From assembly GCA_903813345.2 (NCBI GenBank), contig CAIIXF020000006.1, forward strand, positions 24,559,936-24,623,935: DNA of 64,000 nucleotides, in the 5' to 3' direction. Made by a program: the position numbers and the translations under genes. The number at the start of each line of letters is the position of its first letter. Position 1 is the first letter of the stretch. Origin of the DNA: Owenia fusiformis. Taxonomy: Eukaryota; Annelida; Polychaeta; Sabellida; Oweniidae. Under the pieces are notes generated by a model. The model saw only the letters and a program-made list of their open reading frames with translations. It had not been told where the DNA came from and did no database searches. This document shows, in pieces, positions 8,601-57,302 of the stretch.

Positions 8601-8746
8601 TATTTCATATAAAAAAACACACCACAACATAAAAATGTTTATATCATGATAATATATTCACAGTATACATAAAAGCTGAGTTATATGTTTCATTACCATA
8701 TTATATATTTATAACCAATCATATTTTATCACAGTTTTTGTTGCAG

Positions 8747-9145
8747 ATGATGATAACCACAATGATAACAAAGCACAGCGTTAGATTGATATTTTGTGCG
8801 TTTTTGGTCGTCAGCCTAGTCCAAGAAGCAACCGGGGACGCTCATTCCTCCTGTCGGTTATACTGCCAAACAAATTTTGACAATAATATATCTGCCCTCA
8901 ATTACTGTGTAGATGTAGAATGTCCAGCTATGTACCGATCACGCGTGAACCGATTTGGGAAAAGACTATTCTTACATAAGTCAGAAGAAACACTTAATAT
9001 GCCGGTAAAAATCTCATCTTTGAAAACGGAAACGCCACATGGAGGAATAACGGATTCGGTGATACAGAACGAGCAGGACGCTGACATAGTACGAGAATTA
9101 AGAAAACTCATTGCACAAAGTTTGAGAAAAGAGACCCTGAAATAA
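8747..9145 (+). CDS. Cysteine-containing RFamide-like neuropeptide precursor
   Basis: A 132-residue secreted precursor. Residues 1-30 form a signal peptide (basic start, hydrophobic LIFCAFLVVSLV, small residues before DAHSSC). A four-cysteine segment follows (C36, C40, C54, C59), leading directly into SRVNRFGKR at 65-73: Gly71 is an amide donor and Lys-Arg a dibasic cleavage site, so processing would give an -RVNRFamide C-terminus. No basic cleavage pair lies between the signal peptide and the RF, so the mature peptide may be the whole ~40-residue disulphide-bonded region. A spacer peptide rich in charged residues follows to the stop. The first ATG lies immediately after a good 3' splice site (TTTTTGTTGCAG at 8735-8746), so the 5' UTR is probably spliced. 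I do not recognise the family. Its RF-amide C-terminus recalls NPF/RFamide peptides but four N-terminal cysteines are unlike NPF. Confidence 0.7.
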   Translation: MMITTMITKHSVRLIFCAFLVVSLVQEATGDAHSSCRLYCQTNFDNNISALNYCVDVECPAMYRSRVNRFGKRLFLHKSEETLNMPVKISSLKTETPHGGITDSVIQNEQDADIVRELRKLIAQSLRKETLK

Positions 9146-11676: not shown

Positions 11677-11691
11677 TGACTTGTAAGTCAA

Positions 11692-14600
11692 ATGTTTGCT
11701 ACGAGGAAACTACTAAAGACACTAAGGACTAAACATTTACACCAGTCCAGCATGGGAGACAAGCAACCGCCCGCCATTTCTGATAACACGGGAGCAGCAG
11801 AGCACACTAAAAACGCAAAGGACTTCTCGGGAAAACATAACGGTGGTGATCGTTATATGGAGCAGAATCTAAAGTGTATACACCCAGAACAAAATAAAGC
11901 ATTAACTAACTTCAGTATCGATTTTATACTGAGGAACGACGATCAACATGTAAAGAACCCGACTGTTTGTGAAATTCAGGATCTCGTGGAATCAAACGTT
12001 TTCGGGGAATCAAAAAAGTCCATGAACTATAAAGGTAGTGATATGATTTCTGCAACCTCACAGGTTCATATTTGATAAGATATTACAATTCTAAATTGTA
12101 ATGGAAACATTCCAACATTTTACCCTCTTATAGTTAATGGTTTCACTCTAAGTAATGACAGTCTGTGTGTTAATAAATTTTATTGTATTAATTTATCAAT
12201 TTATCTTAAATTTTCTAGTTTTCACTTTAGGTGACCTTAGCGAGAACCTTTGCAAAATTGCCAGAAACATTTTTTTTCCTTTAACGCGCTAAACCTTTTT
12301 ATCAATTTTAATTCTGTTTTAGATTTTGATAAACGCATCAATGATGGAATGGATGAAGTCATGGACCGAGGGAAGAGAAGTCGCACCACCTTTTCAGCGG
12401 ATCAAGTTAATGAGCTCGAAAGGGCGTTCAAGAGAACTCATTACCCAGATATATTCATGCGCGAGAAGCTGGCTCTGAGGCTTGGTCTTCCCGAGTCGAG
12501 AATACAGGTCGGTATTATATTATTGTGATTAATTCATACTATACTGGACATGACATATCTCATTCCAGCCAATCAACACACAATATTAAACAAATACTGG
12601 ACTATGAGGTGGATATTCCAGAATACCTATCCGAGGAAAAAATACTATGCGAGACGAAATTTTATTATGCACCTCCCTTGGTTAATATCATATTCCTACC
12701 ATCAATTTACTGTAGATAAATAAAAGATGGTGTTAAGTTGTCAAAAAGTAATTTATTTTAGAGAATGGGTCTACTAAAACAGAAACCGAGCCTAGTATTT
12801 TTTCGAGGATAGGTATTCTGGCATACGGGATGGTTGGAGATCTCGTTGCTTCAATACCGGATAGAACGAGATCTTGCTGACATGGCGATATACCCCACAG
12901 CTCTTAAACCAATCAGATTTGAGTATTTTAATGAGGTGCATAATAAATTATGATATCGTTCTATGTTTAACAATAGCTTTTGAAATCAGTGAAATTGATA
13001 ACCCTCATCAGTCAGCAATGCGGTTGTTCCGTTTGTTTGGCACATGTTAATTATACAAAGTATGAAATCCACTATTTGGGATCAATTTATTTATGGATCA
13101 ATTTGGTGAGAGGTGAAATGATGAGTCAGTCGGAAGATTTGGACATGGCACATTTCAATATTACATAAGTTTGAATTAAAGGTTTGGTTCCAAAATAGAA
13201 GAGCAAAGTGGCGGAAACGAGAAAAACATGGTTCTGCTACTGGCGAATTTCAAGATCAAGATGGCTTCTATACTAAAGATACAGCTACCATGAGATTCCC
13301 CGACAAACTGACGACACACCGACCATCTGGTCCTTTTGAACTTAAGGTGAGAAGCAAAGTTCCTTCAGAAAGATCCTACCACTTTTTGAGGTAACGGCCA
13401 TTTCGATCTGAATTTCTAATGGTCTTCATATGAATGTATTAGGGTTGTTCAAAATGTTTTGCACAGATGTCAAACTATGAGAATAACCAATCTTGTTCAT
13501 AGTTGGTAATTGGAAACAAAAAGCTATGGTGGAAAACTTGAAGAAAAATGAGAAATTGTATCTCACAAGTTATATTCATTAGTAAATATCGACATGATGT
13601 ATACTATGAATCCATTAGACATTGTACTCCAAGATGGAATTGAGAAAGAGAAATCTATTGACAGCAGTTGTTGACATCCTGAAGATGGGTTTGGGACTAA
13701 AAATGCCGGAATACAAAATCACCAAAAAATGAATTAATGTAATTTGTGTTAAGGATCGAAATACATTAGCCTATCAAGACATTTGAAAATTAATCAAATT
13801 TAATGTTGCATGGACTCGTTGATGTAAATCTTGGTCAATGAATACCTGGAAGACTAATATATATATGGTTCTGAAATTGCATTTATACATATAAGAAGAC
13901 TGGTTATGAAGTTTCATGTTTAGCAAAGAAGATCTCTACTCTTGAGAGGCCTTTCGTGCAAGACGTTTTGAACGACCCAAATACATGTATATGTATGGTA
14001 TGGTAAGCACCAAAATATGAATTGATTTTATGGAAAAGTTGGATTGGATTAGTTTACATTGATTTTCTTTAAAAATAAAGGATCTTTTTACCATTGATCT
14101 CTTAATGAAAAGTTGATTACTGCAATCCTAATCTGTAACTCTTTTCAGTTGGCTTTTAGACCATCAATATTTATTTATGGTTTGGGAATGTTTCACTCAA
14201 AATTGTTTGGCATGTTAAATGTGGCATTATACAGGGTTACACAAAAATGTGACCATCTGTTCTTTGTAAAACTCTCTCATTTATGCATATGTATTATGAA
14301 CTCATGGATCTTCAATTTTCATGAATTTTCTTTACCCACTAATAGAGGGTACCACTTTTGTGTCTTTTAAAATGGCTGCCGTAATAAGAGTAAGTAATAA
14401 GAGATCAATTGCAAAATGTAAATATGCATTGACTTCATAACATTTGATCATATGTTATGGATTGGAATTCACGACAATTGTAGAATAATTGATGTTAAGT
14501 TTATTTATTGCAATTTATTATTTATCAATCATTCTTATTATTCCCTGCCTTCTCTGACCAAACTTAACTATTGGCTTTGGAAATATGTTATGAAATAACG

Positions 14601-28686: not shown

Positions 28687-29963
28687 GAGATTCAAGATTC
28701 AAGATTCAAGATTTTATTGTGTTTCAAACCAAACACTTGGTTTCCTCACAAAATCAATTACAAGACATTTACATATAATTATACAATTAAAAAAACAACA
28801 TGCATTGTTTCACAAATACCATCATACAATCTTTCCTTTTTCAAATAGCTCCCGACGCTGATTAAAAAGTTTATTTATAAAATGTATCAATTCGTTAACA
28901 ATTTCAAAATCATCAGAAGTCATCAAAAAGTTATATTTTTCTTTATCCGACATATTATCAAATGTGTCAATAAAACTTAGTTTATTAAAAAATTCAAATC
29001 TACATTTTTTATAGCCATCACACACAAGAAGAAAATGCTTTTCATCCTCTACTTCCCCCTTATTGCAAATCTGACAAATTCTTTCATTTATTTCAAGTCG
29101 ATGCTGTTTAGTGCCATCTTTTTTCTTTTTCTCGTGTCTCCCTGTTTCAATTCTTAAATTATGGTTTGCTAATCTAAACCTGGCCATTTTAAAAATTAAC
29201 ATTTTGTTCACGCTTAATGTTAAATATCTTTCCAGATTGTAATCAATTTTCATATAATTTGATTACTAATATTAAGTTTTCTATTTTCCCTTATAGCTCT
29301 ATCATTAAGTTCTATACATTTTCTTTGCATTTCAAGTTTAATTGCTTTTAGTAATCGTTTTATTCCAAACGTACTCCCATTTTCAAAGACATGTTGAAAA
29401 TGAAAGTACTTTAATATGCATTCCATATGTTTGACATATATGTTATTTTTATCCCGAAATGATATATTTATTAAGCTATCCGCGTTTGTTTGATGCACAC
29501 ATTTCAACCAATATTTTATGGAATATATAAGTGAGTCTATAGCTAATGGAAATCTTCCTAAATCTTTTTTAACGGCATAACTTGAAGTATATTTGTTAAC
29601 CCCTAAAAGGAATTTGCAAAATTTATTGTGTATTTTTTCAGGAATAAAGTCTTCATAAGAACTCTCTAGTTTAAGGTCCCCTTGACTAATCCTTCTGTCA
29701 ACTTTCAAGTGAAGCATTGACCAAAATTCACTTCCGTATAATAATATAGGCTTAACACACATGTCAAAGATTTTTGTGTGCAATTCTACATTGATAGTTG
29801 AAAACTTAAAATTTTGTCTCATCATAAAAATAACTTTCATCGCCTTCTTACTTAATTCTGATATGCCATGTTTCAAACTCCCAGAGCTTTTTAAAACAAA
29901 TCCCAAATATTTATATTCATTTACTTTTTCTATATTTATACTTCCAAATTTAAAACATCTATA
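28687..29963 (-). pseudogene. 5'-truncated non-LTR retrotransposon (LINE), 3' end
   Basis: The minus strand encodes the region after the reverse-transcriptase core of a LINE polyprotein. It starts at KCFKFGS...NEYKYLGFVLKSSG (truncation at about 29963) and continues through KPILLYGSEFW, KFCKFLLGVNKYTSSYAVKK, DLGRFPLA and YWLKCV. A one-base frameshift near 29252 moves the frame; the second part (29253-28822) ends with a CCHC-like element, ICQICNKGEVEDEKHFLLVC, and a charged tail. The 3' end is AATAAAATC followed by about three TTGAATC units (28687-28715), the simple-repeat tail seen in CR1/L2-type LINEs. Truncation at the 5' end is the usual outcome of target-primed reverse transcription. The frameshift makes it inactive. 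Family assignment below non-LTR level is uncertain. Confidence 0.85.
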
Positions 29964-31111
29964 GCTAGGAGTAAACTACATCGTTTAGTTGCTATATCAT
30001 TGGAATATTGGGCACTTCACAAAAATCACGATACTTTCTTAACCATATAACAATAACAAATAAGATTTAATTGTAAAAAACTATGATTTTGTTGTTCTAA
30101 AACGCCCCGATGAAAATTATTCCAAGAAACGTTAGTTTCAAAAATACGCTCAGAGTATTCTGGTGGAGTAATTCCTGGGAATTGAATTTTTATTCAAAAT
30201 CCTCTGAATTCACTTCTCTGATTCAAACGAGAACAAATATTTGAAATCTCCATTCATTAAAGAGTTAACGGCACATTGAAATCTACGAAATCGTACGGTG
30301 TATATTTACAAGAATGGCTAAAAGCCAACTACAATTAAACAATTCAGAGTCCTAAAATGAACGAGTGAACATTTGTTCGCTTTTGTATGAACGTTCATCA
30401 TTCTGGTTTTTGCTATCAATCATAAAAGTGCCCGTTGTTAATGTTTTGTGAAATATGTAATTTCAAAATATATTTCAATCGATGTATATAAATGGATTTC
30501 AGAACATATTAAGAATTAACTGATATTATGAAACGGAAGGTTACTTATTCACTACAGTAGTTATACAGGATGTCCATAATCTCTACACTTTACACAGACT
30601 TTGTTTTGGAATTGTTTCGACTTTATTGACACCTTGTATATTATATATTATTATGAGACGTGTGTTTAAAATAAGAAAACACAAGAGTAAAAGTATATAT
30701 ATAATTGAAAACATTGTCTATAATGATATTTAGAATACTAGAAATATAAAGATGATATTTATTAGAATATAATAGTTAATGTTATATATTCATAAATGAA
30801 TACACAATGTACAAAGAAAAAACCATCATATTACATTTATGTATTGACATCAGAGAGTCAATAAAATATATATATAGTCAAGAGACAAATGTATAAGAAT
30901 TGAATGGTTTCGTTTTTATTCTAATTGTGATTTTGGTTACTTTCCTATGGTATGTGAAATGCAGAATCAGTTCGGCTAGTAGAACTATAGCAAGAAACCT
31001 TTCCAAATGAGTGTTTCATTTTAAATTAGGTCACTCTAATTTGTGGAATTTAATTTTACTAATAACAGTTTTAACTTAAAAGTATAATGATGTCACTTTG
31101 TTTATGTTTAG
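29964..31111. other. Intergenic AT-rich; 69-bp minimal element at 30569-30637
   Basis: At about 30567, TACAGGATGTCCATAA is followed some 55 bp later by TTATTGACACCTTGTA, imperfect inverted ends like the minimal mariner-end element at 28012. Otherwise non-coding. Confidence 0.4.
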
Positions 31112-31119
31112 TTTGAAAC

Positions 31120-31486
31120 CAGAGGGGGAGAAACACCAGGGTTCAAAGATGACATACGCTTATAATGTAAATCTGTATTGAGATGACATCGTCGCTGATT
31201 GGTCAAAAGTCAACAAACAAATGACGTCATCAATGGCGGTTTCAAAATTTTCGGAATACGCTTCGAATAATATTATGTTCATCTCTGGCGTTTTAACCAA
31301 TATCATAGCTTCTCATTTCACATCAAGATAAGGAAAGGTGTACGGAATATGCCTATGTCAATTAAAACATCCCATCGAAGGTAATATTTGATAACTAGCC
31401 GATGAAAATTTGAACGAACGAAGGTGGTAAGCAAGAGAGGTAATTATGTCTGTCATCTTTAAACTCTGGGGCTTTCCCTCCTCTTG
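31120..31486. mobile_element. hAT-like MITE with 8-bp target duplication
   Basis: Starts CAGAGGGGGAGAAAC and ends in the inverse, CTTTCCCTCCTCTTG; arms of about 37 bp include TCAAAGATGACATAC / TGTCTGTCATCTTTAAAC. The flanks are an exact 8-bp direct repeat, TTTGAAAC (31112-31119 and 31487-31494). An 8-bp duplication and CAGAG-type ends are hAT hallmarks. No transposase inside. A relative lies at 3382-3611. Confidence 0.75.
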
Positions 31487-31711
31487 TTTGAAACGTTAGA
31501 TGGTGAATGTACATTCGAGTATATTACACTCCCAAACATTAGTTTGGTAACAAGAAGTTTTCATTCAATGGCAAATCGGAGCCTAGAGATGTTTGAATGT
31601 TCATTTTTCAAGTTGCTAAGCAGACTTTGGTGAGTGATCTTAGGCCTAAAGGGATCTTTGGTTGTCATAGTTATGGAGGGGAGTGTAAATCATAGATTTG
31701 AAATACAATGA

Positions 31712-32414
31712 TTACCTACCCGGGGAACAATATGGATCATTCATACAATTCTGCATCAGGTTACCACGGTGGGCGTGCAAGGAGGCCTGTCCCATCTTAG
31801 CACCTAGTTGACTGTATATACACGGGAATCCACCACATTTCCGCTTTTCTACAGACGATTTCAGCAGTTGACTTATTTCTCGTAAAGTTTCGAGATTTTC
31901 ATTATTCCTAAAAAGGTTTCATAAGTCGCATGAATTACACTACTTTTAAAAAAGATTTTTAAATTCGGTTCCCAATTCGATTACAAAGGTTTTACGAATT
32001 GCATTTGTTCTTAAATAATTTTAGAGAATTTACATTTTCAAATCTAAGACGACTTTGGTTCGCAGCTGTGTTTCTTTTTGGTTATATTCATCTCATAGAT
32101 ACCAATAACGTAACATACTTCATGAGCAGGATAATATTAGTATAATTATAGTATTTACCATAAATGTTTCAATCCTCCACGCTTTATTTCAATCATAAGG
32201 GGGAATATGTTTTGTTGGGAAAACTTTCTCTATAATTTTTTATAATTCCTGCGATATTGAAATAATATTTTGAGACCTTAAAAGTCAGACGCTCAATTCG
32301 ATGTGTAATAACATATTAAAAAGAGACTTACCTTTCTATGTAAAACCCCTTTGAAAAGGGAATTATCACTGCAAACACGACACATGTCAACAAAAGATTC
32401 CAAATAAGCATCAT
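31712..32414 (-). CDS. Four-cysteine amidated peptide hormone precursor, two exons
   Basis: Minus-strand exons 32414-32332 and 31907-31712, separated by a phase-2 GT-AG intron (donor GTAAGT, acceptor CTTTTTAG), encode 92 residues. Residues 1-23 are a strong signal peptide (MMLIWNLLLTCVVFAVIIPF, then SKG). A short acidic linker ends in Lys49-Arg50, a convertase site. The predicted mature peptide, from about residue 51, has four cysteines (KCGGFPC at 51-57; NCMNDPYC at 81-88) separated by 24 residues, and ends SPGR at the stop codon. Trimming Arg and using Gly as amide donor would give a C-terminal prolinamide. A 3' splice site (TCTAATTTAG) two bases before the ATG implies a spliced 5' UTR. All features are those of a neuropeptide or peptide hormone gene. 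I do not recognise the family. Confidence 0.75.
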
Positions 32415-32416
32415 TC

Positions 32417-33330
32417 CTAAATTAGAGCCAAGACATGCAATACATTTAAAGAAAAACTCCGCTTTGACTAAAACAAAAGGAAAGATTTTAATGATATCTT
32501 AAGAATACGCCTATAAGTAGACGAGGAAGGTTAATTGTGGTTGTAACGTGAAAAATCAGAGCTTAGTAGATTATTTTATTATTTCTTAATACTTTATTGT
32601 CTATTTTATGCTGCGCCTCCTCATATTGGCATTTTTGTTAACGATGTCGAGCTCATGTGATGACTTCACCTTATTGAGAGGGTAGTACAATGTGATTGGA
32701 TGGCTAATGTCATGCGCCACTTACAAAGGATTCTGGGATGTCACCACCTCTGTGTACCCATGGATTATACCAGATCTCGATATCGTCCCTTGCTGAGCCT
32801 TCTGCTGGAATCCATAAAGAGGCTGTCATTTCTAATTCTACAATTGATGGCCAAACTGTTGGTCAGACTAGGACATTTTTATATAGCACCAGGGGACATG
32901 TTTCTGCACTTTACTATCATTCGTTTATGAGTATCATCCTTGGATTAAAACTATTAAGATAATAACAATTGTTTTATTTTTTATGGAGATCGTTACCTGT
33001 GCAATGTGTCTCAATAATAGGTTACTTCGCAATTTCATAGAGCAAAATCTGAGGATACGAGGCTTAAAGATTTATTTTGATGTGCCTATAATGTGGTGGA
33101 AAATGTTCAACAACGTGGCTGGATGTATTTTTCCATAGAGTACTTCCTACAGTACCTCTATTTGAAGAATGAGCGCATAACATGATAATGAAGAATGTGA
33201 AATTAAGCGGTCAATCTGTTTACATATTTGCTTCATGATACGTAACTTTCATTTGTACATTACATTATACATGATGCCCATCTCTTCATTTATTACACAA
33301 TTCCTCCATTTTGATCGTCTGACGATTTTA
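32417..33330. other. 5' flank of the peptide gene
   Basis: Should contain its upstream UTR exon and promoter, not identified. Two overlapping frames of about 75 codons on the plus strand (32700-32962) have somewhat higher GC than their surroundings but no recognisable domain. Confidence 0.35.
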
Positions 33331-35379
33331 GTTAGAGACCCATGCCTCTCTATCGTTTCAAAAAATTTACCCAACGTTGCGGTCTCTGTTAATTTATGGC
33401 ATCCATACTTTTCTGAAAGGTAACACTTTGAGGTTCAATTTTCTGCCGGATGCCCTTGCAAACTCTCATTGGTTGCTCTGTATTGTAGCATTCCGTTACC
33501 ATGGTTACGCATCTATAGGCATCTTACCTTGGAATCTTAAATCATTTGTAGCTTTGTCATTATTTTGTCTATAGATATGATATTGGTATCTAATTAAACC
33601 TAAATAAATGTCTCATATATTTAAATATCCAATTATGCAAATTAGCTCATTTGCATAAATTGTGACGTCATAAATCTATTTTTGGTTCAGAATTTTCAAG
33701 TATAGCAATGTATCTTTAAGAACTGAAGCCGTATGGTAGAATTTCTTCAATGTTATGACTTTTATTCTGTGAGCAGAAGGTTTAAGCAACATAAAAGTGA
33801 AAACAGATTCAAAATTGGATCAGAACTAACAAAGTTATTAATGTTTCTGGGCAGCTACCATGAACGTTATCATTGAATAATTAACTTTAAACATCTTACC
33901 TTAGAATTGAAATGTTTGGTAGCTTTGTCATTATTTGGTCTATAGAGGAGATCTTGGTATTGAATTGATCCTAATTGAATAAATGGTATGGTAACGATAT
34001 TCAATTATGCAAATTAGCTAATTTGCATAAATTATGATGTCATCAATCTATTTTTGGTTCAGAACTTCCAAGTATAGCAACAAAGGAGGGCGAGTTGTTT
34101 GTAGAATGAATCGGGGGATTTTTTTCATGAATTTCGCTTATGTTTTTCATCCAAAAAACATCAATACACTTTAAAACATTTTGTTTACTTTAAGATTACA
34201 CCATGTAATCAAAAAATATATTTCTCGTTTTCAAAGATAATCCATGGATTAACACCCAGGTATTTTTATTTTTCAAACTTTAGAGGGCTGGGAATCATTG
34301 ATGCTCAACGCTTTTGAATATGATAAATGCTGTTTTAAATAGGTTTTACGTATGCCAATAATTTCTCAAATTATGTAAGCTGAATGCATTCCATAATCCC
34401 TAGAATATTCTCTTGGAGGAATCCAATGGTATCCAATGGTAGTTCCAAGTAGATTTTTAGATGGCAGGTAAGTAAATTCTTTAGTACTCGCCTTATTGGG
34501 TTGAGTTAGTTTATATTCAAAAAATATATATGATTCTGTAAAGATGTCAGTGTGGATGCTATATAGATTGCACACGTATGGTTAGCTGTATAATCCTATA
34601 TTATGTAACACGAGTACAGTTTTGGTTGACATGATTGTGACTGAGTGAGAGATTAAACTCTTTAAGGTAGTTCTGCATGTTGATAATTTTTACTAATTTT
34701 GGTGATGAATAAATTATCTGATAATTATAAATTGGGCGATATTTTTGACATTTTAAGTGGATATAAAGAATTATGGTAACATACACATGGACCATGCATA
34801 CACATACAATTACAAATGTGAAAATATTGTCCCTTTCATTGATTATCGGTATTTATAATCATGAAAATTATTGAAAAATATCGAGACATGTTTACCTTAA
34901 AATCAGATTGGCTTACAAGTACCCTAAGCTATTTTCACATTTTTATTGCAAGAAAATCTTTTTGCAAGGATTACAAAGGCTGAAATATTGTGGTGGCTCT
35001 ATTTGGCTGGAGTTTAATATTCAGACCTAGCTATAGGTATTATTACATTTATATGTACACTAGTATCTTGTTGACCTATATTCAGCACTGTATTGATGAA
35101 TGGGCCACTTATTAGGGCCAATATTCAATCATAAAGTGTACAGGGGTAGAGATGCCAAACCAAGAAGTCTTTTTGTGTCTGTCAAAATCCATTTGCATCC
35201 TACACATCCCAACATATTATCCAAATATGTTATTAATTAATGAAACATAACAGTATAATCTTTGGATTTAGAAAGTTGTATGGGATTTCATTAGTATAAA
35301 AGTTGCTTTTGAAGCATTTTTCTATAGCCATTTTGTAGGAAAAAAATGATGGAAAAATGTATAATCTTTTAATTTGAAG

Positions 35380-36060: not shown

Positions 36061-37164
36061 TGCCTTGTCTTATAATGTAGCCAACTGCAATGGATGTAAA
36101 AGGTATACAGTTAACTAATACATTTCTTGGCATCAATTCAAATCATATGCTAATTTTAAATGAAAATGCTTTTTTTCATGTTTTACCACTCATAAATGCC
36201 ATAATATCTCGATGTCACATTCAGGAAAATATGGCTATCAACAAGTTTTGAATTCTTACAATCCTGGAAGTTGTACAAGTAAGCGTACACATCTGTCAGT
36301 TCAGTTTATGTGTAAAAGTTAATCCCCTAAGCCTTAATACCTGATGCATGAAATATTATGAATGAGTTACATAATATGTACTCGTGCTATTTAGGTAAAT
36401 GTTGTGCTGTTTCACCAGATTTGACTGACATCTTTAAATAACAACAATTTGATTTGATGATCAGACAGCAACAAAACATATTAAGTGGCCAAGACAAAAG
36501 AATGTTATTATGATAGGCATTCTAGGGATGAGGGAATGCATTCAGCTTACATAATTTGAGAAATTATTGGCATACGTAAAACCTATTTAAAACAGCATTT
36601 ATCGTATTCAAAAGCGTTGAGCATCATTGATTCCCAGCCCTCTGAAGATTGAAAAATAAAAATACCTGGGTGTTAATCCATGGATTATCTTTGAAAATGA
36701 GAAATATATTTTTGGATTACATGGTGTAATCTTAAAGTAAACAAAATGTTTTAAAGTGTATTGATGTTTTTTGGATGAAAAACATAAGCGAAATTCATGA
36801 AAAAAATCCCCCGATTCATTCTACAAACAACTCGCCCTCCTTTATTAGATCCGAGGTTGGATGGTGTAGTTTCTGCATAGTTCGTCATTGATTCTATGAG
36901 TGGAAGAGGTATGAGCAACATCAAAAAATATTCAAAATTGAATGAGTATTAGTAAAGTAATTCAGCTTTTGAGGCAGCTGCTATGTACGTTACTATTTGA
37001 CAATCATAAATATAACACTTTTGACTATCATTGACATGGGTCAAAACAGTTTTTTTTGATTTTGTAACATGATTTATTGTTTGTGAGAAAGTTATGGATT
37101 AATCAGTTAGTGAATGGGTGAATGGTATGGCGAAATCTGTTATGTAATCTATAAATCATTGAAA

Positions 37165-41925: not shown

Positions 41926-43794
41926 AAGATACTGGATGAGCATAATGTAAAAGTGGTTTTGAAAAGTAGCAAATTTCTCTTTATGTAGGTTTTTTGTGGT
42001 TTATTATTCTACATTGATTCTGAAACTATTGGTGTCTAGTTTTTCAGCGTTTTGGAAATATGCAGATTTATACCCCCCTGGTGTTATTTTAAGGGGGGTC
42101 CTAGGAAAGCCATGTATAATTCCTAGAGTATCCAACCAATCATCTTGAAATTTACAGGTAATCATCTTCTTATCATGTCCTATCATTGTGAGCAGTTTCA
42201 TCAATATTGGTTGGCTGGTTGCTATGGTAACAGAAATCACTTGTTAAAAAAGTACACATTTTCGTAAAAATTTAAGACCTACCCTGAGACAAAGCACATA
42301 ATATTTTCCTGGAATTGGGAGGAATTAGCATGAAAACATATTAGAAAACTTATTTAGAGTATGGTTGATAATACTAAATCAATTGATGTTTTATTTTAGC
42401 CATACAATTAATTATATTTGCCGATGATAATATGGCTATGCAAAAAATGTGTAAAAGGGGGCGTGGCACTTTTCCCAAGAAAACTTTATTTGTACCCAAG
42501 TTTGTGAATAAATATATGACTATTCATTCTGATATTAACAGATATTAGTATAGTTATGATGTTTAACCATCATGGGAAGTTTCGCTATTGTTGGTCTGCT
42601 GGTTGTTATGGTAACAGAAATCATTTGTTAAAACAGTTGACCATTAAAGGGGTATGGGGTATATTATCTAATTAAGGATATAAACTTTGTCTTCAAATAT
42701 ACATTCATGGCTTTGTGAGGTCATCAATGTGATTTTATTTATGTGTGCTTAATTTGCATCTTGGAATGAAGTTTTGAGGAAAACGCATTTTAACAAAATC
42801 AAATAAATTATTGTTTATATTAAATAAAATCAGTAATCTCATTCTGGATGATACTAATTTATCACTCACTCACATGCTTACCTATATATTTGTTTCTTTT
42901 CAAATCAACCTGACATCTTTATGAAATATACATGTTTGAGTGATTCCCGTCATGCTTAATATCCAGATAGAAAATAATGTTATTCATAAAAATAGTTAAT
43001 GATTCCTATTTGATATAACAATAATACCAAATTTAGAGCATTAATTAAATGTTGCAATTAGAATTTAGACTTCATTAATGTGATGGCAAATTAAATCTGC
43101 ATTCCTAGGAATAAGTTGTATATGCAATGATTAATCAGTTGTTGATATGAGCTTTTGTTGTCAATGTTATGCTTCAATTACCACAGTTCATGCCTTTTTG
43201 ATTAGCTGTGCAGACCTGATGAAATAGATATACGTTGTGCGGTTAAGCTGTGCTACATCTAGATAGAGGTGAGTGATTGTGGACAGGTGAGTGATTTAAG
43301 TCAGGTGAGTGATTTTGGACAGTGGTTCCAAACAGTGCGGTGCGGTTGCCTAACTGATTACTGGGCAGTTGCGAGTGATTTTGGACAGTGGTTCCAGACA
43401 GTGTGGTGTGGTTGCGTAACTGTGTAGATGCAGAGGCATTCTTTATTTTCTTTATTTTATAATTTTAGGGTGAAGTCAAGGTAGGTGATCTAATACACAT
43501 TGTTTATGTGTGCTGCATACAGATAAAGTTTAGTGACTCTGTGTTAATAGATTGAGTGATTTTGGACAGTGGTTCCAGATAGTGTGCTGCGGTTGCAGTT
43601 GTGCTATATACACAGTTATTCCTTATTTTTTACTTTTACGTTTCAGTTAAGGTAGGTGATTTAATACACCATCGTTTAGTTTCCATTATTGCATCGTGGA
43701 GTGTTGCCCTTCCAATATATATACTTTTTTCCATATATCATGCAACTGAGTAGAACCCTGTAAATCAATGTATTAGTGTTGTTACGTATATATC

Positions 43795-44280
43795 ATGTCC
43801 GAGAGAAGTTTGAGGAAAAGATCCTCTGCTCTAGCAATTGGTGAAGAATGTCATAGTGAGAAATTACGCCAAAGCAACCTTTTTGAACAAAACAAGTGCC
43901 TCTTTTGTGAAAAAGATCTGAAATATCTCAAAGGAAACACAAAAGAATCATTAACAAAATGCCAAACAGACAACGCTTCAACATCAATAATAAATGCAGT
44001 GAAAGCCCAAGAAGACTGGACTTTACATGCAAAAATAGGAGGACGCTGTTTGATATCAGCAGAAGCTTGGTACCATAATACCTGTAGAAGAAATTACTTG
44101 TGCAAGAAAGTACGAATGATAAATGAAGAGGAAAAGGTTTCAATAACATCATTTGACTTCATATGTAAGCATATAGATGAACATGTCCTTCAAACCGATG
44201 GAGTTGAAACACTTGAACATGTTCATGAGCTGTATCAGGCACATATGAAGGAAAACTATCTGAGTGACTATAACCCCTAA
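43795..44280 (+). CDS. Zinc-binding-type ORF of foldback element, frameshifted
   Basis: 161 codons from ATG at 43795. The sequence has a paired-cysteine knuckle CLFC (35-38), then ESLTKCQTD (51-59), IGGRCLISAEAWYHNTC (81-97) and RRNYLC. This C-x2-C ... W-Y-H-x2-C-x2-NY layout is seen at the N-terminus of long uncharacterised, transposon-associated proteins in many invertebrate genomes and probably binds zinc. The stop at 44278 looks artificial: in the next frame the text continues KYKQLFLKNKLSVRYKDDL for about 40 codons, as expected for a one-base change in the CCCC run at about 44275. The element's original protein was therefore longer. Whether this fragment is expressed is unknown. Confidence 0.6.
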   Translation: MSERSLRKRSSALAIGEECHSEKLRQSNLFEQNKCLFCEKDLKYLKGNTKESLTKCQTDNASTSIINAVKAQEDWTLHAKIGGRCLISAEAWYHNTCRRNYLCKKVRMINEEEKVSITSFDFICKHIDEHVLQTDGVETLEHVHELYQAHMKENYLSDYNP

Positions 44281-44520: not shown

Positions 44521-45547
44521 GGGCTTAACTATATCCCTACCGAACTTCGTTCGTTGGGATAATAATGTAGATATCAAGAAAAACTGACATTATTTTTTCA
44601 CTTTGAACACAAATAAAGAATTCTTAGGAAATTGTGCCATGGCCCCTTTCTAATTTTTTTGCAAAGCCAGTTTACCATCAGCAAGTAGAATTATTTGTAT
44701 GGCTAAGATAAAGCATCAAATGATTTAGTTTTATGAAACATACTCTAAATAAATTTTCTAAAATGTTCTCATCCTGACTGTCATAAAAATATTATGTGTT
44801 TTGTGTCAAGGTATGTCTTAGATTTTTAAGAAAATACAATCTTTTTTAACAAATGATTTCTGTTACCATAACAACCAGCAGACCAACAATAGTGAAACTT
44901 CCCATGATGGTTAAACATCATAACTATACTAATATCTGTTAATATCAGAATGAATAGTCATATATTTATTCACAAACTTGGGTACAAATAAAGTTTTCTT
45001 GGGAAAAGTGCCACGCCCCCTTTTACACATTTTTTGCATAGCCATATTATCATCGGCAAATATAATTAATTGTATGGCTAAAATAAAACATCAATTGATT
45101 TAGTATTATCAACCATACTCTAAATAAGTTTTCTAATATGTTTTCATGCTAATTCCTCCCAATTCCAGGAAAATATTATGTGCTTTGTCTCAGGGTAGGT
45201 CTTAAATATTTACGAAAATGTGTACTTTTTTAACAAGTGATTTCTGTTACCATAGCAACCAGTTAACCAATATTGATGAAACTGCTCACAATGATAGGAC
45301 ATGATAAGAAGATGGTTACCTGTAAATTTCAAGATGATTGGTTGGATACTCTAGGAATTATACATGGCTTTCCTAGGACCCCTCTTAAAATAACACAAGG
45401 GGGGTATAAATCTGCATATTTCCAAAACGCTGATAAACTAGACACCAATAGTTTCAGAATCAATGTAGAATAATAAACCACAAAAAACCTACATAAAGAG
45501 AAATTTGCTACTTTTCAAAACCACTTTTACATTATGCTCATCCAGTA

Positions 45548-52929: not shown

Positions 52930-54720
52930 GATTTTATAATACAAGATTAAGATCACATGATTTTGACCCCTGTGAATGATAGTCAAAATAAATGTAACAT
53001 TTCAACATACTTTCATGTACAGTTCAATGGAAAAAATATGAACAAGTCATGAACATGTTTACTCAATAAGATTGAAACAACTATGTTTGTTTCTTTTTTT
53101 GTTATTGTAATTGTTATTGTAATATTTTTATAATTGTCAAACAATGACATTCACAGTAGCTGCCGCAAAAGCTGAATAACTAATTTAATTCTGACCCAAT
53201 TTTGAATCTGTTGTCTCTTGAATGTTGCCCCTATCTTCCACTCATCAAATAAAGGTCAAAACTATGCACATATTCTGTCTTTCGGCCTAAGTTCTAATAT
53301 ATATGTTGCTAACTGGGATATTCTGAACAAAAATAGATTGATGACGTCACAATTTATGCAAATTAGCTAATTTGCATAATTGAATATTGTACAGGAAATT
53401 TTATAAGGTTTAATTTGATACCAATATCATTTCTATAGACCAAATAATGACAAAGCTACAAACACTTTAAACGTCCATGGTAAGATGTCTGAATAAAATT
53501 GTCAAATAATGACATTCACAGTAAATGCCTCGAACGTTTAATAACTTTGGCAATACTGATCCAATTTTGAATCTGTTTTCACTTTTATATTGCTTATACA
53601 TTTTTCTTATAGTCTAAAGGACCAGACTTTGCCGAAACTCTGACATACGGCCTCAGTTCTAATAGATATGTTGCTATTCTCGAAATTTCTGAATCAAAAA
53701 TTGATTGATGACGTCACAATTTATATTGAATATCATTACTTTATGAGACAATTAATTAGGTTTAATTTGATACCAATATCATCTCTATAGACCAAATAAT
53801 GACAAAGTTACAAATGATTTAAGATTCCAAGGTAAGATGTCTATAGATGCGTAACCATGGTAATAATGAATAAACCATGAAAATAATCTTTTGTCTTTAA
53901 ATGATCTCAATATAAAAACTGCTATTAATTGCACCTTAGAGTATAACATTTTAAGAGGAGCCCTGCACAAAAGAGAGACATCTAGTGTCAAAACCCTTTC
54001 AACAAAACAAGTTTATTCTAGTTACATACAGAATTTATTTTTAGAACCAACCAACAGTTTATTAAAGGATGATACAGATGTAGATAAATACTTTTATTGG
54101 TGCTTAGCACATAATGTCACTAAAGAGACTAGGTTAATAGTTTTTAAATGGAAATTTTTACACAATATTGTGATAACAAATGATAAACTTTTTAAAATGA
54201 AAATAAAGGAAACGCCAAATTGTAATTTTTGTAATGAAAACAAAGATGATTTAACCCACAGATTTATAACATGCAATTTTGTACTCCCAATATGGGACTT
54301 TATAAGAAACAATTGTGAAATAAGTTTAAATGAACAAACCATCTTTAAAGGTATTTTAGGTAAAGAAGAAGAGTATCTTAATCAAGTAATAATTGTTGCT
54401 AAGTGGACAATCCACAAGCAAAAAGTTTGAATTGTACCAAAATAATAATATCTTACATAATTTTAAAATAGAACTTGATAAAAGAAACATATGTATTGTA
54501 ATTGTAAAATTTTAAAATGATATGAAAATAAATTTTAAATATAAAAAAATGGTAACGGAATGCTACAATACAGAGCAACCAATGAGAGTTTGCAAGGGCA
54601 TCCGGCAAAAAATTGAGCCTCAAAATGTTACCTTTCAAAAAAGTATGGATGCCATAAATTAACAGAGACCGCAACGTTGGGTAAATTTTTTGAAACGATA
54701 GAGAGGCATGGGTCTCTAAC
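52930..54720 (-). repeat. GTTAGAGACC-headed satellite element, minus copy
   Basis: The reverse complement starts at 54720 with GTTAGAGACCCATGCCTCTC and proceeds through the same blocks as 33331 onward, with TAGCAACATATMTATTAGAAC marks about 365 bp apart (about 53310 and 53672). Homology to the plus copy extends to about 52950 (TTTTGACTATCATT). It is interrupted by a LINE fragment at 53864-54548. Confidence 0.7.
53864..54548 (+). pseudogene. 685-bp LINE 3' fragment with ATGGTAA duplication
   Basis: The plus strand encodes the C-terminal end of a non-LTR polyprotein: FKWKFLHNIV, then NDKLFKMKIKETPNCNFC and a zinc-knuckle-like C-x2-C-x8-H-x4-C (CNFCNENKDDLTHRFITC), then a tail ending HKQKV. This is the domain found after reverse transcriptase in many LINEs. 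A stop at 53867 shows no coding upstream: 5' truncation. The 3' end is A-rich. ATGGTAA at 53857-53863 and 54549-54555 flanks it, and the uninterrupted sequence CCATGGTAACGG (seen inverted, CCGTTACCATGG, near 33495) in the other copy is the empty site. It differs in sequence from the 28.7-kb LINE. Confidence 0.85.
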
Positions 54721-55649: not shown

Positions 55650-57302
55650 AAATGTCCCCACCTATGGGTGATCCTGTCAAATGGTTATCCTAAAAATGAG
55701 TAGACAAGACTTTACCGACACAATTTGAGGACGGAAAATCCAAAATGGCCACCTTAAAATTTACCCAGAATGCCCAGAAATAAGTCAGTTCTAGATTTTC
55801 ATACTAAGAACCACCCCTGAAAATTTGAAATTGATCTGTCACACAGTTAACCAGAAAACATGTAAACAAGACTTTACAGACAAGATTTGAGGACAGAAAA
55901 TCCAAAATGGCTGCCTTGACATTTATCCAGAATGCCAAAAAACTAATCTGTTCTAGATTTTCATATTAAGAATCATCCCTGAAAATTTGAAATTGATCTA
56001 CCAAACGGTTCACCTGGAAATGCGTAGACAAGACTTTACAAACAAGATTTTAGGACAGAAAATTGAAAATGGCTGCCTTGACATTTACCCAGAATGCCCA
56101 AAAACTAATCAGATCTAGATTTTCATACTAAGAATCATCCCTGAAAATTTGAAATTGATCTACCAAACGGTTCACCTAAAAACACGTAGACAAGACTTTA
56201 CGGGCAAGATTTTAAGACGGAAAATCCAAAATGGCTGCCTTGACATTTACCCAGAATGCCAAAAAACTAATCAGATCTAGATTTTCATACTGAGAATCAT
56301 CCCTGAAAATTTCAAATTGATCTACCATACGGTTCACCTTGAAATGTGTAGACAAGACTTTACAGACAAGATTTTAGGACGGAAAATCCAAAATGGCTGC
56401 CTTGACATTTACCCAGAATGCCCAAAATCTAATCAGATCTAGATTTTCATACTGAGAATCATCCCTGAAAATTTGAAATTGATCTACCAAATGGTTCACC
56501 TGAAAATGCGTAGACAAGACATTACCGACAAGATTTTAGGACGGAAAATCCAAAATGGCTGCCTTGACATTTACCCAGAATGCCCAAAAACTAATCAGAT
56601 CTAGATTTTCATACTAAGAATCATCCCTGAAAATTTGAAATTGATCTACCAAACGGTTGACCTGAAAACGCGTAGACAAGACTTTACAGACAAGATTTTA
56701 GGACGGAAAAATCCAAAATGGCCGACAATAAAAAAGTGGTTATAAGTTTTTGCTGATTTCTTTTTACAAAATTATCACATATAACTACTGTTAACAATAA
56801 CATAGGCTTTTACAACAAAGTCCACCTGAAATTATTTATAAAGCTACTAAATAGTTTAAGTATGAAAACTGAAAAACACCATTCAATATGATACAAAGTA
56901 TTATCGTGCGCTAACTTTTCTTAAAACATTCAAAATGGCTGACATGACTGAGCTAACAGGTCCAAAACCTAATCAGATCTAGAATGAAGTAAGCTGAACA
57001 AGATGTTAAAGTTTTAAAAGCAACTGTGAAGCCGTTTTTCTTAAAGTTTGCAGACAAGGATTTTAGCATTTGACTTCAAAATGGCCGACAGGAAGTAGGT
57101 ATTGAGTTAATTTTTTTTCATCCACATCTGCATGCACTCATAAGTTATCCCTGAAAATTTGAAGGTGATATCTGTAGCGGTTTTGGAGAAAACTGCCGGA
57201 CGTACGGACAGACGGACAGACAGACAGACGGACAGACAGACAGACGGACAGACGGACGCGCCTAGGCCGACAATATGGCCCCACACTATGTGGTGGGGAC
57301 AT
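55650..57302 (-). mobile_element. 1.65-kb element with exact 162-bp tandem repeats
   Basis: The ends are ATGTCCCCACC (55650) and GGTGGGGACAT (57302), inverse of each other and like the ATGTCACCACC family. Inside, TAGACAAGAC or its variant occurs at 55701, 55863, 56025, 56187, 56349, 56511 and 56673, exactly 162 bp apart each time. Each unit holds AAAATCCAAAATGGC, TTTACCCAGAATGCC, AGATCTAGATTTTCATAC and GAAATTGATCTACCA. A CAGACGGACAGA microsatellite (about 57195-57257) and GGCCGACAATATGGCC precede the right end. No coding frame survives. Confidence 0.8.

What the first reader, a model, noticed from the sequence alone, without database searches (positions are those of the whole stretch)
31712..32414. 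Unassigned four-cysteine, C-terminally amidated peptide hormone gene
Two small minus-strand exons, joined in phase by a textbook intron, give a 92-residue precursor: strong signal peptide, KR convertase site, a 41-residue peptide with C-GGFP-C and C-MNDPY-C pairs, and a terminal GR just before the stop, implying prolinamide. Neither exon is conspicuous on its own. Seen: frame, splice sites, motifs. Inferred: processing and hormone role. I do not recognise the family.
Basis: partly seen in the sequence, partly recalled or inferred. Interest (0 to 1): 0.75.

Follow-up and report, generated by a model that had tools for sequence, protein, structure and literature searches.

The report
Unassigned four-cysteine amidated peptide hormone gene
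An animal genome segment carries what looks like a small, intact two-exon gene for a secreted, amidated peptide with two likely disulphide rings that could not be placed in any known hormone family, but there are no RNA data, related sequences or receptor data to prove it.

Summary
On the minus strand, 32414-32332 and 31907-31712 join in phase into a 92-residue precursor: hydrophobic leader, 22-residue propeptide, KR, KCGGFPC...CMNDPYCSP, GR, stop. The donor is the window's only AAGGTAAGT on either strand. Of three GT[AG]AG donors within 5 kb that open exon 2 from an ATG, only this one supplies a hydrophobic leader. None of 1431 simulated strands gave a comparable four-cysteine precursor, though the criteria were written after seeing the candidate. 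Most likely it is a real gene for a secreted, disulphide-bridged, prolinamide peptide, probably a neuropeptide or hormone; mature length 40 residues. No family assignment survived. Calcitonin/CGRP/amylin shares the KR-K-C-x4-C start and Pro-amide end, but A has an extra C-x5-C pair and is no more similar than shuffles. Orexin, GNXQN, PXRX, CCWamide and eclosion hormone fail on defining features. Two crinoid four-cysteine amidated precursors (PMC9793003) could not be compared. Relatives, RNA-seq and species identity were unavailable, so conservation is untested and function inferred. A second, dissimilar four-cysteine amidated precursor (NRFamide) lies 23 kb away (8747-9145, plus strand).

The parts
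32332..32414 (-). coding exon 1: hydrophobic leader MMLIWNLLLTCVVFAVIIPFSKG (cleavage point not predicted) plus FYIE and two bases of Arg28
   Evidence: best ten-residue hydropathy 3.18
31908..32331 (-). phase-2 intron, GTAAGT...CCTTTTTAG, 424 nt
   Evidence: donor AAG|GTAAGT is the only such 9-mer on either strand of the window
31712..31907 (-). coding exon 2: propeptide, KR site, four-cysteine peptide, GR, stop TAA
   Evidence: 43.9% GC against 28.5% in the intron
31841..31846 (-). KR convertase site (residues 49-50)
   Evidence: translation; cleavage inferred
31721..31840 (-). predicted mature 40-residue peptide KCGGFPCIYSQLGAKMGQASLHAHRGNLMQNCMNDPYCSP-amide
   Evidence: calculated monoisotopic mass with two S-S and amide 4321.898
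31715..31720 (-). Gly-Arg: amide donor plus basic residue, directly before the stop
   Evidence: amidation inferred
32468..32485 (-). possible acceptor of a 5'UTR intron, 14 of 15 pyrimidines then TAG; exon would start at 32467, 53 nt before the ATG
   Evidence: no donor or UTR exon assigned

Best explanation
A two-exon animal gene, single-copy in this window, encodes a secreted prepropeptide. Shown in the sequence: hydrophobic leader, 22-residue propeptide, KR, a 40-residue stretch with four cysteines, GR, stop, and canonical splice signals. Inferred: the leader is removed in the ER, two disulphides form (simplest C2-C7 and C32-C38, a small ring at each end of a linker), a prohormone convertase cuts after KR, a carboxypeptidase removes Arg92, PAM turns Gly91 into the Pro90 amide, and the peptide is released as a neuropeptide or hormone acting on a receptor, probably a GPCR. 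The family is unassigned.
For: Exact frame and splice signals; only AAGGTAAGT in the window; GC contrast between exon 2 and the intron; of 3 GT[AG]AG donors within 5 kb that give an ATG-open exon into the 31907 acceptor, only 32331 gives a leader; 0 of 1431 null strands with at least 4 Cys; a good extra acceptor upstream that fits a 5'UTR intron; no overlap with repeats found by self-BLAST of 31000-33000. Amidated four-cysteine peptides are an accepted kind of predicted neuropeptide, e.g. crinoid PCNP6 and PCNP7 (PMC9793003, section 36).
Against: No transcript, no homologue and no conservation test. The leader lacks a basic residue before its core. Exon 1 alone is not GC-rich: 44.6% of 83-base windows equal or exceed it. 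Criteria were post hoc and the finding was picked by a reader looking for such things. AlphaFold2 without relatives gives pLDDT 58, so no structural support. The exon 1 donor could also splice to other in-phase acceptors (one search lists 21 with at least 25 further codons, this one included, several inside the LINE-like frames at 28825-29975). No AATAAA lies within 790 bases after the stop.
Confidence: 0.68

Rival explanations
1. It is a divergent calcitonin/CGRP/amylin-superfamily peptide that gained a second, C-terminal disulphide: the KR-K-C-x4-C start would be the receptor-activating ring and the Pro-amide the C-terminal anchor for a class B GPCR. (This would be a special case of the best explanation, with a family.)
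For: N-terminal disulphide ring and C-terminal amidated proline are the shared features of CT-type peptides other than CGRP-type and DH31 (passages of PMC12638048; PMC6002491). Amphioxus CTFPs combine CGRP-like ring length and an N-terminal extension with Pro-amide (PMC6283891). Ring C2-C7 after a leading K is the same spacing as amylin (recalled sequence).
Against: Against 7 CT-family peptides, A's local alignment scores were reached by 26-88% and its global scores by 12-93% of 1000 Cys-fixed shuffles (the lowest, 12%, against Ciona CT), and local scores by 15-89% of full shuffles; a profile of the seven gives 0.2 bits, reached by 29% of Cys-fixed and 21% of full shuffles. No calcitonin model among Pfam matches (E up to 5, up to 10; the program's filters drop most weak matches). 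Described CT-type peptides have two cysteines; A has four. Echinoderm and hemichordate members mostly have a ring one residue larger. The post-ring segment shows no significant helical moment (27% of shuffles reach it) and a larger moment at the strand-like angle of 160 degrees.
Confidence: 0.13
2. It is a secreted defence or venom-like peptide, not a signalling hormone.
For: Short cysteine-bearing amidated precursors of this size also occur among such peptides (established knowledge); nothing in the sequence excludes it.
Against: KR site plus GR-stop amidation with a single copy is ordinary neuropeptide anatomy; only four cysteines; no family hit above cut-off. No library of venom or antimicrobial peptides was searched.
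Confidence: 0.12
3. Chance assembly of open frame, leader and motifs in 34% GC intergenic DNA.
For: 79 of 1431 null strands give some amidated two-exon leader ORF, so the looser part of the pattern is not rare; criteria post hoc; no homologue found.
Against: 0 of 1431 null strands reach four cysteines, 9 reach two; perfect donor, GC contrast, upstream acceptor.
Confidence: 0.07
4. It is already known under another name, for instance one of the unassigned crinoid precursors PCNP6 or PCNP7. (Compatible with the best explanation; only the novelty would go.)
For: [quoted passage not shown]
Against: Their letters are in figures and supplements that could not be read here; nothing shows that this window is a crinoid.
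Confidence: 0.1

Closest known systems
Calcitonin/CGRP/amylin superfamily (amphioxus Bf-CTFPs, amylin)
   Same: Cys ring of amylin-like size near the N terminus with a leading residue; C-terminal amidated proline in most invertebrate members
   Different: second cysteine pair C-x5-C near the C terminus; sequence similarity no better than shuffles
Crinoid PCNP6 and PCNP7 (PMC9793003)
   Same: amidated four-cysteine peptide, unassigned family
   Different: sequences not seen; cannot be compared
Orexin-type peptides
   Same: cysteine-bridged, amidated, short precursor
   Different: vertebrate and Ciona orexin-A have an adjacent CC pair, ambulacrarian OX six cysteines; A has neither
Conchiferan PXRX family (PMC6425005)
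   Same: four conserved cysteines, two likely disulphides
   Different: P[FM]R[WY] motif absent from A; two Dreissena members also lack it; alignments not seen

Membership tests
amidated neuropeptide/peptide-hormone precursor (general kind) | N-terminal leader, convertase site, Gly before basic residue or stop | tested here: met
   by sequence only, no signal-peptide predictor
amidated neuropeptide/peptide-hormone precursor (general kind) | expression in neurons or endocrine cells and a detected processed peptide | not testable with these tools
   no RNA or mass-spectrometry data
calcitonin/CGRP superfamily | N-terminal ring from one Cys pair | tested here: met
   C2-x4-C7 after KR; the disulphide itself is inferred
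calcitonin/CGRP superfamily | C-terminal amidated proline (most members) | tested here: met
   SPGR-stop; amidation inferred
calcitonin/CGRP superfamily | only the two N-terminal cysteines | tested here: not met
   four cysteines; two in the members described in the passages seen
calcitonin/CGRP superfamily | sequence similarity beyond the cysteines | tested here: not met
   seven peptides and a profile of them, no better than shuffles; no calcitonin model among Pfam matches
calcitonin/CGRP superfamily | central amphipathic helix | tested here: inconclusive
   helical moment reached by 27% of shuffles; low-confidence model with helices 11-17 and 28-34
orexin type | adjacent CC (vertebrates, Ciona; 4 Cys) or six cysteines (ambulacrarian) | tested here: not met
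   A has four, none adjacent (criteria)
GNXQN/prohormone-2 | GN[QHR]QN motif | tested here: not met
   A has GNLMQN and no GN.QN (motif)
PXRX | four Cys plus P[FM]R[WY] | tested here: not met
   motif absent (definition, with two exceptions in Dreissena); cysteine spacing of the family not seen
CCWamide/agatoxin-like | eight cysteines, amidated aromatic end | tested here: not met
   four cysteines, Pro end (definition)
eclosion hormone | six cysteines | tested here: not met
   four cysteines (definition)
crinoid PCNP6/PCNP7 | same cysteine spacing and sequence | not testable with these tools
   letters only in figures and supplements

The most novel reading that the evidence does not exclude
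A previously undescribed bilaterian peptide-hormone family whose single mature peptide carries one small disulphide ring at each end (C-x4-C and C-x5-C) and a prolinamide, possibly an offshoot of the calcitonin superfamily in which a second ring was added at the receptor-anchoring end.
Probability: 0.3. Interest if true: 0.62.

Novelty: new member of a known kind. Interest (0 to 1): 0.42.

Why it matters
If transcribed and conserved, it adds an orphan ligand that could be synthesised and paired with an orphan receptor. Small spliced precursors like this are easily missed, because neither exon stands out alone. If it proves to be calcitonin-derived, it would show how that scaffold can take a second ring.

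Tried and rejected
Calcitonin/CGRP membership: looked promising (EKR|KC-x4-C, Pro-amide) but failed the shuffle and profile tests and the cysteine count. GNXQN: the GNLMQN stretch was a lead, rejected on the motif. PXRX, CCWamide/agatoxin-like, orexin and eclosion hormone: rejected on motif or cysteine count. PF06816 NOD (E 0.2, 0.13) and TIGR00194 uvrC (E 0.15) are below cut-off and were dropped as chance. Paralogy with the second precursor at 8747: tblastn of A against the window (E up to 50) shows no match in that frame. Structure: the single-sequence model of A has pLDDT 58 and was not searched. Relatives of A: viral contigs (28 pattern matches, 0 confirmed) and prokaryote contigs (225 matches, 0 confirmed). 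Rfam: 0 matches at gathering scores. ARAGORN: 0 genes, run with the bacterial code. Literature text (open-licence PMC papers only): CGGFPC 0 papers; CMNDPYC, GNLMQNC, CRLYCQ, NYCVDVEC 0 papers; NRFamide 0 papers. Species: not identified; the window is taken as animal (paired-like homeobox, LINE-like frames, spliced exons), phylum unknown.

Papers, what was seen: PMC6283891 parts 1-3 of 6; PMC9793003 passages and section 36; passages only of PMC4772807, PMC6586643, PMC10987541, PMC12638048, PMC4200219, PMC5627052, PMC6188537, PMC7314547, PMC8557429, PMC8398477, PMC6002491, PMC3890597, PMC6425005; other papers as search listings.

Errors of mine: exon 1 was cut one base short (frame broken, corrected), and the list of alternative acceptors used the same short exon and is invalid; it was redone. 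Pfam coverage, checked: one search scanned 140 of the 150 longest of 278 ORFs of at least 52 residues; the other 10 were covered (8633-9142 from its Met at 8747 only, 31715-31918 within the joined precursor). The remaining 128 of the 278 and all shorter ORFs were not scanned.

Full report
What is there. The minus strand of 31712-32414 encodes two exons. Exon 1 (32414-32332) ends GAAAG|GTAAGT, and exon 2 (31907-31712) follows CCTTTTTAG. Joined they give MMLIWNLLLTCVVFAVIIPFSKGFYIERNNENLETLREISQLLKSSVEKR|KCGGFPCIYSQLGAKMGQASLHAHRGNLMQNCMNDPYCSP|GR-stop, 92 residues, the intron lying in phase 2 inside Arg28. The coordinates and motifs in the finding are correct; the mature peptide is 40 residues once the glycine is counted as amide donor.

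Is it more than chance. The donor is the only AAGGTAAGT on either strand of the 64 kb. Exon 2 is 43.9% GC against 28.5% in the intron, and 4.7% of 196-base windows are as GC-rich; exon 1 (34.9%) is unremarkable, 44.6% of 83-base windows reaching it. Of 2970 ATGs in the window, 543 open at least 28 codons and 6 of these have a ten-residue core of hydropathy 3.0 or more. Three GT[AG]AG donors within 5 kb upstream give an ATG-opened exon into the 31907 acceptor, and only 32331 supplies a hydrophobic leader. A scan for leader + intron of 60-2000 + dibasic site + at least four cysteines + G[KR]-stop finds this gene alone on the two real strands, and 0 of 200 simulated strands and 0 of 1431; 9 of the 1431 had at least two cysteines and 79 had any amidated two-exon leader ORF. 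The criteria were written after the candidate was known, so these figures measure how unusual the pattern is and are not a formal p-value. A further acceptor with 14 of 15 pyrimidines lies 53 nt before the ATG (exon start 32467), as a 5'UTR intron would have. The stretch does not overlap the repeats found by self-BLAST of 31000-33000; repeat pieces lie downstream at 31109-31203 and 31448-31494.

Weak points. The leader has no basic residue before its hydrophobic core, and no signal-peptide predictor was available. The nearest AATAAA is 791 bases after the stop. No whole genome is held for the window, and no relative was found in viral contigs, prokaryote contigs, PDB sequences, Pfam or NCBIfam; none of these is a library of invertebrate peptide precursors. 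The single-sequence AlphaFold2 model has pLDDT 58. Expression, disulphides, cleavage, amidation and receptor are therefore inferred.

Which family. The start (KR, then K-C-x4-C) and the Pro-amide end recall calcitonin-superfamily peptides, in which an N-terminal ring and an amidated proline are the features shared by most members (passages of PMC12638048; PMC6002491; parts 1-3 of 6 of PMC6283891). The second cysteine pair is not a feature of the members described in the passages seen. I therefore do not file it there, while keeping 'works like' open. Orexin (adjacent CC or six cysteines), GNXQN (GN[QHR]QN), PXRX (P[FM]R[WY], with two stated exceptions), CCWamide/agatoxin-like (eight cysteines) and eclosion hormone (six) fail on a defining feature. 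Two unassigned crinoid precursors, PCNP6 and PCNP7, are described as amidated peptides with four cysteines (PMC9793003, section 36 read), but their letters could not be seen.

Mechanism. The most likely course is ER entry, formation of two disulphides (adjacent pairing gives a small ring at each end; hairpin pairing is not excluded), cleavage after KR, trimming of Arg92, conversion of Gly91 to the Pro90 amide, and release as a neuropeptide or hormone. Only the anatomy is shown; each processing step rests on established knowledge of prohormone convertases, carboxypeptidases and PAM.

Neighbourhood. A second candidate precursor lies at 8747-9145 on the plus strand, directly after TTTTTGTTGCAG: leader, DAHSSCRLYCQTNFDNNISALNYCVDVECPAMYRSRVNRF-GKR and a tail. 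It has no Pfam match, no NCBIfam match above cut-off and no viral-contig relative, and A shows no match to it in tblastn. Its mature part folds without an alignment as a two-helix hairpin, pLDDT 76, whose best PDB matches are insignificant (E 2.4: a vicilin leader peptide and Luffin P1). A paired-like homeobox split by an intron lies in the open frames 12241-12525 and 13125-13391, which with the LINE-like frames marks the DNA as animal.

Verdict. The reading as an unassigned amidated peptide-hormone gene is plausible and the best available, with novelty limited to a new member of a known kind until relatives or transcripts are seen.

Noticed in passing
window 8747-9145, + strand: Second candidate peptide precursor: 132 residues in one coding exon directly after an acceptor-like TTTTTGTTGCAG, leader, four-cysteine peptide (C-x3-C, C-x4-C) ending NRF-GKR (NRFamide); single-sequence model is a two-helix hairpin, pLDDT 76. 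No relative above cut-off. The lophotrochozoan CCRFamide family is named in PMC3890597 but its letters were not seen, so it was not tested.
   Followed up: partly
window 11680-13391, + strand: Paired-like homeobox gene with an intron inside the homeobox after ...ESRIQ; an upstream open frame holds an FSIDFILR stretch like an octapeptide motif (motif recalled). Highest-scoring PDB sequences are DUX4, then aristaless.
   Followed up: partly
window 41930-42636 and 44841-45547: 707-base inverted repeat arms, 99% complementary, 2204 bases apart, enclosing an open frame at 43777-44277 with no Pfam family above cut-off; looks like a recent foldback or terminal-inverted-repeat element.
   Followed up: no
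window 34079-34406 and 36519-36846: 328-base inverted repeat arms, 97% complementary, 2112 bases apart.
   Followed up: no
window 28825-29975, - strand, and 53870-54427, + strand: LINE-like remnants: the second has a zf-RVT domain (E 1.1e-10); the first is so called from its look, without a Pfam family above cut-off.
   Followed up: no
window 55678-56787: Tandem array with a 162-base period, six steps, 71-85% alike to a 300-base reference copy.
   Followed up: no
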